Shown: in pieces, positions 44,026 to 46,284 of the stretch
Layout: every line of letters starts with the position of its first letter
Numbering within the stretch: position 1 is the stretch's first letter
Program-made: the position numbers and the translations under genes
From: Bdellovibrio bacteriovorus
Lineage (GTDB): Bacteria > Bdellovibrionota > Bdellovibrionia > Bdellovibrionales > Bdellovibrionaceae
Length of the DNA: 64,000 nucleotides
Direction: 5' to 3'
Assembly: GCF_001592755.1 (NCBI RefSeq)
Contig: NZ_LUKF01000014.1
Location: 124,841-188,840 of the forward strand
The notes under the pieces: model-generated
Told to the model about the DNA's origin: nothing
Databases searched by the model: none
Seen by the model: only the letters and a program-made list of their open reading frames with translations

Positions 44026-44772
44026 CTAGATTCCCAATTCAGAATGACATTCGGAAATGACTTGCTTACGAGATTTTAAACCTCGCTCGCAGGAGCGAGT
44101 AAGTTCACGCAGGATTTTCAGTTTCTCGTTATCTTGTTTCGCTGTTTCAATGCGATCTGAAAACGAAGTCGCCTCTTTAAGGACGGCAGTTTGAAGTTGC
44201 ACTGCCAACGCGAGTTTTTGTGTGGTTGTCTCTGCATTGGCCGCTTCAATTTGCGAAAGAACATTACGGAAAGAAACGGGAAAAAGAGCCGAAAGCAAGC
44301 CGACTTCTTCTAGCTTCACTCGGAAAATAGGATCGGTAAAGGCGCGGGCGCCTTCGTTTTTATAGTAATGTACTAAGTACTGTGTGCGCTCATTCGTTAA
44401 ACGCTCTCGATCCATGTAAGAAGGATTGCAAAGCACCGAGCAGATCTCAGGCATGTTTTTTTGTGCAATGGAAGAAGCTAGTTCGTCAAAAAGATTTAAC
44501 TCTGTCACATAGTTATGACCAATGTGAGTGAGTTCTCGAAGATTGGGATTCACATCGGTATTTTTGCCTTCGCCATCTAAAGGCAATGTCGGCATCATGG
44601 TCGCTTTGGCGACAGGCATTTTTTTAGAAGACTTCAACGGCTCGGGACGGGTGGCTTTACTCAGTTGATCGATGGCTAAGTAAGACAAAGCCGTGACGCT
44701 AAGAAGGGCGCAGGTGATCGCACCCAATACAAAGAACAAAACATATTTTAAAAGCCGTTTTACAAAGCGCAT
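44026..44772 (-). CDS. Membrane-anchored protein, unknown
   Basis: The 248-residue protein has one N-terminal transmembrane helix after a basic start (MRFVKRLLKY; then VLFFVLGAITCALLSVTALSYL). The remainder is helical and charged, with cysteines in EICSVLCNPS and SCERGLKSRKQVISECHS. It is likely a periplasmic domain tethered to the inner membrane. It lies next to the glutaminase-like gene in the same direction (66-nt gap). No family is recognised. Confidence 0.6.
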   Translation of the reverse strand: MRFVKRLLKYVLFFVLGAITCALLSVTALSYLAIDQLSKATRPEPLKSSKKMPVAKATMMPTLPLDGEGKNTDVNPNLRELTHIGHNYVTELNLFDELASSIAQKNMPEICSVLCNPSYMDRERLTNERTQYLVHYYKNEGARAFTDPIFRVKLEEVGLLSALFPVSFRNVLSQIEAANAETTTQKLALAVQLQTAVLKEATSFSDRIETAKQDNEKLKILRELTRSCERGLKSRKQVISECHSELGI

Positions 44773-44838: not shown

Positions 44839-45618
44839 TTAGCTGGCAAAGACTTTCGAACAGCGCTGAAAGAATTTTTCCTCTGGCGAAAGGCGGTTCT
44901 TTTTAAAGTATTCAAACATGTCCTTGAAATAATCGTTGTAAAAAGGATCCATCAAACCACCGGGCTTTATGTTGTACTCCCAAGCACTAGGCCCGATTTT
45001 ATTCGCTTCCGTTACAAACATACGAAGTTTTCCGTCGGTCGAGTAGCCTTGAAATTTCTTAAACCATTCTTCCAGAGGAACGGGTCTGCCGATAAAGTTA
45101 TCGACTGCATACCATCCCGCATGATCATTAGCTTTTACGATAGTCGTGACGTGAAACTGCCAATCAATTGTTCCCGTACGCATAGGCCCGACAACGAACA
45201 CTTTTTTGATAGAATCTTTCGCAACACCATGACGAAGCAGTTCTAAGTGGGCATAGAGCGCGCGACCAAAACAAAAACCTACAATGCCTTTCGGATCATA
45301 TTTTCTGCCCGCGCTAAAACCAGTGACTTCGTTAAGATTGATTTTTTGAATGATACTCTGCGCTTGTTCAGAAGTGATCCCATCCACACGATGTTGGGTG
45401 GTGGGTTTAAAGTTATTGATTTCATCAATGAGACGGCGGTTGTTTTCAGCAATATCCTGACCATTGTTAAGTTCCTGACCGCGCATAGAATAAAGGTCCG
45501 CACGGATATTCATTTCATTCCAGCTAGCCGCTTGAACGCGGGCGGCATAAGCCAGAGCAAACGCAATAGCGCAAATATATAAGCCCTGTTTTTTAAGCTT
45601 CAACGCCGACCTTTTCAT
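44839..45618 (-). CDS. Secreted protein with a protein-glutaminase-like (papain-fold) domain
   Basis: The 259-residue exported protein has a signal peptide (ICAIAFALAYAARVQA-ASWN). A Cys-His-Asp arrangement is visible: C116 in VGFCFGRALYAH, H156 in WQFHVTTIV and D173 in YAVDNFIG. This is the pattern of protein-deamidating glutaminases (Gln_deamidase_2), which convert protein Gln to Glu. If real, the target could be a host or prey protein. The ATG at 45618 fits the signal peptide. Family membership is inferred from the triad; the activity is unproven. Confidence 0.65.
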   Translation of the reverse strand: MKRSALKLKKQGLYICAIAFALAYAARVQAASWNEMNIRADLYSMRGQELNNGQDIAENNRRLIDEINNFKPTTQHRVDGITSEQAQSIIQKINLNEVTGFSAGRKYDPKGIVGFCFGRALYAHLELLRHGVAKDSIKKVFVVGPMRTGTIDWQFHVTTIVKANDHAGWYAVDNFIGRPVPLEEWFKKFQGYSTDGKLRMFVTEANKIGPSAWEYNIKPGGLMDPFYNDYFKDMFEYFKKNRLSPEEKFFQRCSKVFAS

Positions 45619-45757: not shown

Positions 45758-45787
45758 AAAAAAAGGAAGGCTTTCGGCCTTCCTTTT
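45758..45787 (-). terminator. Intrinsic terminator after the H1-like gene
   Basis: The stem AAAAAGGAAGGC/GGCCTTCCTTTTT encloses a 4-nt loop. On the minus strand it is followed by a T9 tract. It can also stop plus-strand transcription. Confidence 0.92.
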
Positions 45788-45813
45788 TCATCTTAGAATT
45801 CGCTAAAAAACGA

Positions 45814-46284
45814 TTAAGCTTTTTTAGTCGTTTTCTTTGTGGTCTTGCGAGCAGCTGGTTTGGAAGCGGCTTTTTTAGTTGTCGCTTTTGCAGCTTTCTT
45901 CGTCGTCGTTTTTTTCGAAGAAGATTTTTTCATCGTTTTGTTGAAAAGAGATTTTTCAAGCTTCGCCTTTTGAGCAACGGCTTTCTTTTTGTAAGCCGCG
46001 ATGTTTTTTTCCAAATCATCGGCAGACTTTTTCAATTTCGCGATTGTTGTGTTCACTTCTTTTTCGATTTTCGCTTCGGAAGTGCTCAATACTTTTACGA
46101 TCTCTTGATACTTTTTCCAAGCAAGTTCGATTTGCTCTTCTTTCTTTTGATCGAAAGTTTTTTTAAGCTCAGACTCTTTCTTTTTGATTTCGTCGTTCAG
46201 CTTTTGGAAGTTTTCAAGAAGGTTTTGAACGCCTTTGTTAGCAGAGATATTTTCCAAAATTTTTTGAAATGAAGCTGTAGCCAC
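45814..46284 (-). CDS. Lysine-rich histone-H1-like/phasin-like protein
   Basis: The 156-residue cytosolic protein has an N-terminal coiled coil (SFQKILENISANKGVQNLLENFQKL, then a run of KKKESELKKTFDQKKEEQ). It ends in a basic H1-type tail rich in KK, AAK and TTKK from about residue 118 on. Such tails bind DNA or RNA and occur in nucleoid-associated AlgP/Hc1-type proteins. The start is GTG at 46284 with AAAGGAG 6 nt upstream. A T9 terminator follows the gene. A nucleoid role is inferred; it may matter in the condensed attack phase. Confidence 0.75.
   Translation of the reverse strand: MATASFQKILENISANKGVQNLLENFQKLNDEIKKKESELKKTFDQKKEEQIELAWKKYQEIVKVLSTSEAKIEKEVNTTIAKLKKSADDLEKNIAAYKKKAVAQKAKLEKSLFNKTMKKSSSKKTTTKKAAKATTKKAASKPAARKTTKKTTKKA

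What the first reader, a model, noticed from the sequence alone, without database searches (positions are those of the whole stretch)
44839..45618. Protein-glutaminase-like secreted effector candidate
A Cys116-His156-Asp173 pattern with the family contexts CFGRA, WQFHV and AVDNF sits in a signal-peptide protein next to a membrane-anchored unknown. Protein deamidases are used by pathogens and may serve a predator against prey proteins.
Basis: partly seen in the sequence, partly recalled or inferred. Interest (0 to 1): 0.55.

Follow-up and report, generated by a model that had tools for sequence, protein, structure and literature searches.

The report
Exported glutamine-deamidase-like enzyme, divergent subfamily
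A Bdellovibrio-like bacterium carries a gene for a probably exported enzyme that is a distant cousin of bacterial enzymes which convert glutamine to glutamate in proteins, and its near relatives form a separate branch that we found mostly in relatives of that predator.

Summary
Window 44839-45618 (-) encodes 259 aa with an N-terminus that reads as a Sec signal peptide. C116, H156 and D173 are invariant in 28 of 28 and 43 of 43 aligned homologues. Alone, the protein scores below the Pfam Gln_deamidase_2 cut-off (21.2 of 25 bits). The family is nevertheless clearly related to protein-glutaminase (PG): its profile finds PG structures with C/H/D on the published triad, it aligns with Bdellovibrio-type PGs at E 4.7e-14, and the AlphaFold2 model's five best-ranked rows are PGs (Z 9.0-10.7, then LapG 7.3). 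It does not group with classical PGs: 71 'CFGRA' rows and 31 PG rows are split by a branch with SH-aLRT 99. Most likely it is an exported papain-fold glutamine deamidase; deamidation, prey as target and triad distances are not shown. The membrane-anchored neighbour is not a partner: it persists without this gene. Two wider points: classical PG genes occur in 24 of 24 sampled genomes of the genus, and in 8 named loci, 5 of them Elusimicrobia, the CFGRA gene precedes an AMP-ligase-like gene, with LuxE and LuxC domains further on in L071.

The parts
44839..45618 (-). CDS of the CFGRA-type protein-glutaminase-like enzyme, 259 aa (P0001)
   Evidence: matches in 44 of 140 genomes of the order at E<=0.01, 37 of them at E<=1e-10 (some of the weak ones are classical PG genes)
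45529..45618 (-). Probable Sec signal peptide, residues 1-30, by inspection
   Evidence: sequence; hydrophobic N-termini in the near relatives L007-L010; no predictor run
44905..45390 (-). Papain-like catalytic core, about residues 77-238
   Evidence: AlphaFold2 model, ten-residue blocks at pLDDT 84-98 apart from 211-220 at 59; aligned with 2zk9 within 77-238
45271..45273 (-). Codon of C116, proposed nucleophile
   Evidence: 28 of 28 and 43 of 43; aligned with Cys42 of 2ksv/2zk9
45151..45153 (-). Codon of H156, proposed general base
   Evidence: 28 of 28 and 43 of 43; aligned with His83
45100..45102 (-). Codon of D173, third triad residue
   Evidence: 28 of 28 and 43 of 43; aligned with Asp103
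44920..44940 (-). C-terminal YNDYFKD motif (residues 227-233), a mark of the CFGRA subfamily
   Evidence: A1: Y227 28 of 28, F231 28 of 28, D233 26 of 28; A3: 38, 43 and 40 of 43, but a pattern over this motif was used to find the A3 loci. Not among the conserved columns of the PG set A4
44026..44772 (-). Membrane-anchored unknown downstream (P0002): a neighbour, not a partner
45759..45789 (-). Terminator-like hairpin of the upstream Lys-rich gene, which suggests that P0001 is transcribed on its own; no sigma-70-type promoter match lies between it and the gene
   Evidence: 13 pairs and T run; hairpin present in the two nearest relatives

Best explanation
The gene encodes an exported papain-fold amidohydrolase of the protein-glutaminase superfamily, in a subfamily of its own (CFGRA type). 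C116, activated by H156 and oriented by D173, attacks the side-chain amide of a glutamine in a protein or peptide; ammonia leaves, and water resolves the thioester to give glutamate. The protein most likely leaves the cytoplasm through Sec and acts in the periplasm or outside, including the invaded prey, on prey or extracellular proteins. Shown by computation: exported-type N-terminus (by eye), fold, triad alignment, homology and purifying selection. Inferred: glutamine deamidation, crossing of the outer membrane and the prey as target.
For: PF18626 matches 43 of 43 members of A3 at E<=1 (best 7.8e-7) and 26 of 28 of A1 at E<=10 (best 1.9e-8); of ten relatives rescored, six exceed the 25-bit cut-off. 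The A1 profile finds PG structures 8z3i (1.6e-7) and 2ksv, 2zk9, 3a54, 3a56 (0.009-0.016), placing C/H/D on Cys42/His83/Asp103, the triad named in PMC3498931 (passages). A3 finds 8z3i at 3.9e-9. hhalign of A3 with 23 PGs of Bdellovibrio-like genomes: probability 98.2, E 4.7e-14, 146 columns, triad in register. Conserved in both sets besides the triad: the counterparts of K139, W153 and W185. Model mean pLDDT 85.2, pTM 0.79; the five best-ranked rows are PGs, Z 9.0-10.7, next LapG 7.3. Sec-dependent release to the supernatant has been measured in B. bacteriovorus (PMC12622784, passages).
Against: The protein itself is below Pfam's cut-off (21.2 of 25 bits). Foldseek TM-scores are low (0.35-0.38), rmsd to the PGs is 4.1-4.5 A, the tool warns that Z of 7-8 is common without kinship, and papain-fold enzymes with other chemistry (LapG, NTAQ1) score Z 5.6-7.3. 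The PDB hits other than 8z3i are weak by sequence (E about 0.01). SseI, with the same kind of triad and fold, gave no deamidase activity on generic substrates (PMC3498931, passages). The subfamily also occurs on Elusimicrobia and Riflebacteria contigs, which argues against a function tied to predation. No substrate, expression or localisation data were found.
Confidence: 0.55

Rival explanations
1. An exported cysteine protease or transglutaminase of the same fold (LapG-like): C116-H156-D173 cleaves a main-chain bond or cross-links envelope or adhesin proteins.
For: LapG structures are the next best fold matches, Z 6.4-7.3; two of 43 members of A3 touch the transglutaminase-like DUF553 (best 0.0044) and one Transglut_core (0.14).
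Against: The PG rows listed all rank above LapG; sequence profiles find PG and no protease in PDB; Peptidase C93 is not among the 25 of 26 families shown for A3. The CxxRA, WxxHV and D pattern is also that of the PG set.
Confidence: 0.2
2. A deamidase with an ordinary role: digestion of prey or extracellular protein for nitrogen, or maturation of the predator's own envelope proteins, rather than an effector aimed at prey control. This shares the chemistry of the best explanation and differs only in purpose.
For: Patchy gene in a variable slot; relatives on Elusimicrobia and Riflebacteria contigs; in two relatives the gene lies directly before a trypsin-like gene.
Against: Nothing here separates nutrition from effector use; export and predator lineage fit both.
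Confidence: 0.35
3. The subfamily has moved to acyl or amide-forming chemistry, as hinted by the cluster with AMP-ligase-like, LuxE and LuxC genes in one clade, and P0001 shares that chemistry.
For: In 8 of the 41 named loci with a recognised centre the next gene belongs to one AMP-ligase-like family; LuxE and LuxC domains confirmed in L071.
Against: Seven of the eight lie in one clade of 15 rows, the eighth (L067) was not in the tree; Elusimicrobia loci L062, L063 and L073 lack the pair. P0001 and its near relatives have no such neighbours. The AMP-binding matches are mostly under Pfam's cut-off.
Confidence: 0.1

Closest known systems
Protein-glutaminase of Chryseobacterium proteolyticum (PDB 2zk9, 2ksv, 3a54, 3a56) and Flavobacterium FBPG (8z3i); Pfam PF18626
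   Same: Papain-like fold, Cys-His-Asp triad aligned residue by residue, CxxRA and WxxHV contexts
   Different: Below the Pfam cut-off for this protein; 16-19% identity in fold alignments; extra YNxYFxD motif; zymogen pro-region not established
Classical PG-type genes of Bdellovibrio-like genomes (three in this genome: C1, C2, C19)
   Same: Homologous core, hhalign E 4.7e-14
   Different: CYARA, CEERA or similar instead of CFGRA; split by a branch with SH-aLRT 99 and length 1.34
LapG (BTLCP, Peptidase C93)
   Same: Papain-like fold and triad; periplasmic
   Different: Lower Z (6.4-7.3) and no sequence match listed
NTAQ1, N-terminal glutamine amidohydrolase
   Same: Fold and Cys-His-Asp triad (PMC4214742 passages)
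   Different: Acts on N-terminal Gln inside cells; Z 5.6-6.4; one of 43 members touches its Pfam family at 0.11

Membership tests
Pfam PF18626 Gln_deamidase_2 | Score over the curated cut-off of 25 bits | tested here: not met
   21.2 bits, E 3.4e-4; 22.6 bits in the genome search. Six of ten relatives rescored are over it
Protein-glutaminase superfamily (fold and homology level) | Profile and fold similarity to solved PGs above other papain-fold families | tested here: met
Protein-glutaminase superfamily (fold and homology level) | Cys-His-Asp triad in register | tested here: met
   alignment with Cys42/His83/Asp103; invariant 28 of 28 and 43 of 43
Protein-glutaminase superfamily (fold and homology level) | Triad residues close in space | not testable with these tools
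Classical protein-glutaminase (EC 3.5.1.44) | Pro-region that blocks the active site and is cut off (recalled) | not testable with these tools
   residues 31-76 could be a short pro-region; not shown
Classical protein-glutaminase (EC 3.5.1.44) | Falls among the sampled classical PGs in a tree | tested here: not met
   71 CFGRA rows on one side, 31 PG rows of Bdellovibrio-like genomes on the other, SH-aLRT 99 (quick method, no bootstrap). Chryseobacterium and Flavobacterium PGs were not in the tree, and rows were picked by motif or similarity
Classical protein-glutaminase (EC 3.5.1.44) | Deamidates protein-bound glutamine | not testable with these tools
   no assay
LapG / Peptidase C93 | Match to its profile or best fold match | tested here: inconclusive
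   fold match Z 6.4-7.3, below PG; no sequence match listed

The most novel reading that the evidence does not exclude
Predatory Bdellovibrionota carry a so far undescribed battery of exported protein-glutamine deamidases, classical PG type plus the CFGRA subfamily, that rewrites prey envelope or cytoplasmic proteins during invasion; the CFGRA subfamily is a separate enzyme family with its own substrate class.
Probability: 0.25. Interest if true: 0.8.

Novelty: new variant of a known kind. Interest (0 to 1): 0.48.

Why it matters
Glutamine deamidation is a known way for pathogens to reprogram host proteins (examples in PMC10318531, passages). If predatory bacteria use it on other bacteria, it is an unstudied step of bacterial predation and a source of new protein deamidases, enzymes of interest to the food industry (PMC12791059, start of abstract). 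A 2020 review of Bdellovibrio secreted enzymes (PMC7174725, term search of its text) holds no word that begins with 'deamid' or 'glutamin'. The held open library has no paper with 'protein glutaminase' or 'protein deamidase' together with Bdellovibrio. Most subscription papers are not held, so this is no proof of absence.

Tried and rejected
Rejected: a chance motif (conservation); a decayed gene (dN/dS 0.05-0.06); P0002 as partner. Positive selection as a sign of an arms race was considered. P0001 differs from its G006 orthologue more than its eight neighbours do (91.5% identity against 96-100%), but its dS is also the highest (0.64 against 0.12-0.40) and dN/dS is low, which suggests local exchange or a higher mutation rate. 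Against G012 its dS (2.0) is within the neighbours' range (0.46-2.6, one saturated), so the effect is seen in one comparison of two.

Led nowhere: NCBIfam (8: nothing relevant for P0001; 51: five of 43 A3 members match a Chryseobacterium PG model, best 0.0017), PHROGs and PADLOC (81, 82: nothing for P0001; a weak PADLOC match of P0002 at 0.007 was not followed), phmmer of P0001 alone against PDB (9: chance-level hits), viral contigs (25: none), the first genome-contig scan with one protein (10: none), the viral fold library (47: best is a giant-virus N-terminal glutamine amidohydrolase, 5.7e-4). A rough count of hydrophobic N-termini is not used, as many start codons in that set were guessed.

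Rows dropped: one search gave 30 loci, the best of a longer list of matches; L001 is the window's own copy, and A1 uses P0001 and 27 of the other 29 (L011, with a stop inside, and L021, a near copy of L020, were left out). A3 uses P0001 and 42 of the 43 loci (L067 was dropped because the ORF from its first ATG lacks the motif). L039 in A3 and in the tree appears to be the same gene as L011; only the open stretch after its stop is used. The tree leaves out L011 and L067. Classical PG set: 31 of 32 loci (L113 gave no motif match); A4 uses 23 of those 31. Neighbour survey: 48 of 51 loci had a recognised centre; of the 43 named loci, 41.

Full report
OBSERVATION. The ORF lies at 44839-45618 on the minus strand and encodes 259 aa from an ATG. 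C116, H156 and D173 stand in GFCFGRA, WQFHV and AVDNF. The N-terminus reads as a Sec signal peptide ending near VQA at residue 30 (by eye). The upstream Lys-rich gene ends in a terminator-like hairpin at 45759-45789 that is present in the two nearest relatives, so the gene is probably transcribed on its own; no sigma-70-type promoter match was found between hairpin and gene.

FAMILY. A single-protein search of Pfam gives only PF18626 Gln_deamidase_2, at 21.2 bits against a cut-off of 25. A search of 140 genomes of the order finds matches in 44 at E<=0.01, 37 of them at E<=1e-10; some of the weak ones are classical PG genes. In A1 (28 rows from the best loci) the invariant residues include C116, R119, K139, G144, W153, H156, D173, Y227 and F231. 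A second search gave 43 loci: 26 with labels of Bdellovibrionota groups, 9 Elusimicrobia, 3 Riflebacteria, 5 Proteobacteria or Deltaproteobacteria. In A3 (43 rows) C116, H156 and D173 are again invariant; the two search patterns covered the Cys motif and the C-terminal motif, so conservation of those two is partly by construction. PF18626 is matched by 43 of 43 members, and six of ten rescored relatives pass the cut-off.

RELATION TO PROTEIN-GLUTAMINASE. Profiles of A1 and A3 find the PG structures in PDB (8z3i at 1.6e-7 and 3.9e-9; 2ksv, 2zk9, 3a54 and 3a56 at 0.009-0.016), and the alignment puts the three residues on Cys42, His83 and Asp103, the triad stated in PMC3498931. hhalign of A3 with 23 PGs from Bdellovibrio-like genomes gives probability 98.2 and E 4.7e-14. 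The AlphaFold2 model (mean pLDDT 85.2, pTM 0.79) has PGs as its three Foldseek matches under 0.001 and as its five best-ranked VIA-align rows, Z 9.0-10.7, followed by LapG at 7.3. TM-scores are low (0.35-0.38) and rmsd is 4.1-4.5 A over 143-152 residues, so the shared part is the core. Triad distances could not be measured.

A SUBFAMILY. In a tree of 102 rows, 71 CFGRA rows and 31 classical PG rows from genomes of the window's family are separated by a branch with SH-aLRT 99 and length 1.34 (quick method, no bootstrap). Rows were chosen by similarity or motif, and PGs of Bacteroidota were not included. The C-terminal YNxYFxD motif is a second mark of the subfamily (A1 counts; absent from the conserved columns of the PG set). 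Within the genus 10 of 24 genomes have a CFGRA gene, five in each of two separate clades of the tree.

GENETIC CONTEXT. In the two nearest relatives the whole neighbourhood is kept. In G022, G024 and G011 the neighbours are present without this gene (the MFS gene is also missing in G011), and in G007 other genes fill the slot, one with a PLD-like domain. P0002 is found in 25 of 66 genomes of the family and 23 of 24 of the genus, P0001-like genes in 10 of 24 of the genus. So P0001 is an accessory gene and P0002 is not its partner. In G007 and G009 the homologue lies elsewhere, directly before a trypsin-like gene with a lipoprotein-like N-terminus (by eye; domain checked in L084 only). A PG zymogen is activated by proteolysis (recalled), so the pairing is suggestive only.

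WIDER FINDINGS. Over-cut-off PF18626 genes occur in 49 of 66 genomes of the family; in three of them (G047, G048, G062) only by a CFGRA gene. In the genus all 24 of 24 have one to four, and each has at least one of the classical type; one of the three in G015 is a CFGRA gene and some in G020 and G021 are partial. None of 14 control genomes has one at E<=1e-6; two of 14 give a match under the cut-off at E<=1. This genome has three over the cut-off. In 8 of the 41 named loci with a recognised centre the CFGRA gene is followed by a gene of one AMP-ligase-like family (five of the eight labelled Elusimicrobia); six then have an unassigned gene, about 490 aa where complete, and L071 continues with LuxE and a LuxC-AMP-ligase fusion. 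Seven of the eight are in one clade of 15 rows; three Elusimicrobia loci, L062, L063 and L073, lack the pair.

MECHANISM AND LIMITS. The likely reaction is hydrolysis of the glutamine side-chain amide through a Cys thioester, as in PG. Export is supported by the N-terminus, and Sec-dependent release to the supernatant is established in B. bacteriovorus (PMC12622784, passages). Activity, substrate, expression and delivery to prey are inferred. A protease or transglutaminase with the same fold is not excluded: SseI, with the same kind of triad, showed no activity in generic assays (PMC3498931, passages). That the organism is predatory is inferred: a gene from a genome of the same family (G048, L018) is identical in the tree to one on a contig labelled Bdellovibrio sp. 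(L046).

LITERATURE. No held paper combines 'protein glutaminase' or 'protein deamidase' with Bdellovibrio. Four combine 'glutaminase', 'Bdellovibrio' and 'secreted', none with it as topic by title (listing only). A search for three of Bdellovibrio, secretome, prey and deamidation gave 34 papers, 12 listed; the two Bdellovibrio papers listed with 'deamidation' are on a tRNA synthetase and on histones (listing only). One held paper names Gln_deamidase_2: a classification of papain-like enzymes that places it in a cluster of mostly deamidases and transglutaminases and does not hold the word Bdellovibrio in its main text (PMC10318531, passages).

Noticed in passing
L071:7716-16393, and L066, L067, L068, L072, L075, L078, L081: Operon-like cluster in L071: CFGRA protein, AMP-ligase-like protein, unassigned protein of about 490 aa, LuxE, LuxC fused to an AMP-ligase, then a transporter-like protein (by eye). 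The first pair is seen in 8 of 41 named loci with a recognised centre, the unassigned protein in six of them.
   Followed up: partly
Own genome C1:481791, C2:160923, C19:183748 (L003-L005): Three PF18626 genes over the cut-off; such genes are present in 24 of 24 sampled genomes of the genus.
   Followed up: partly
L084:5736-7486 and L085:6325-8021: CFGRA gene directly upstream of a trypsin-like gene, same strand, gap about 70 bp (domain checked in L084 only); a possible activating protease.
   Followed up: no
window 45814-46284 (-): Small protein with a Lys/Ala-rich tail like that of histone H1 (by eye); found in seven of the seven relatives of the genus whose matching neighbourhood was read, G006, G012, G022, G024, G007 (partial match), G011 and the window itself.
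   Followed up: no
window 44839-45618: Synonymous divergence to G006 (dS 0.64) exceeds that of eight neighbours (0.12-0.40), which suggests local gene exchange; not seen against G012.
   Followed up: partly
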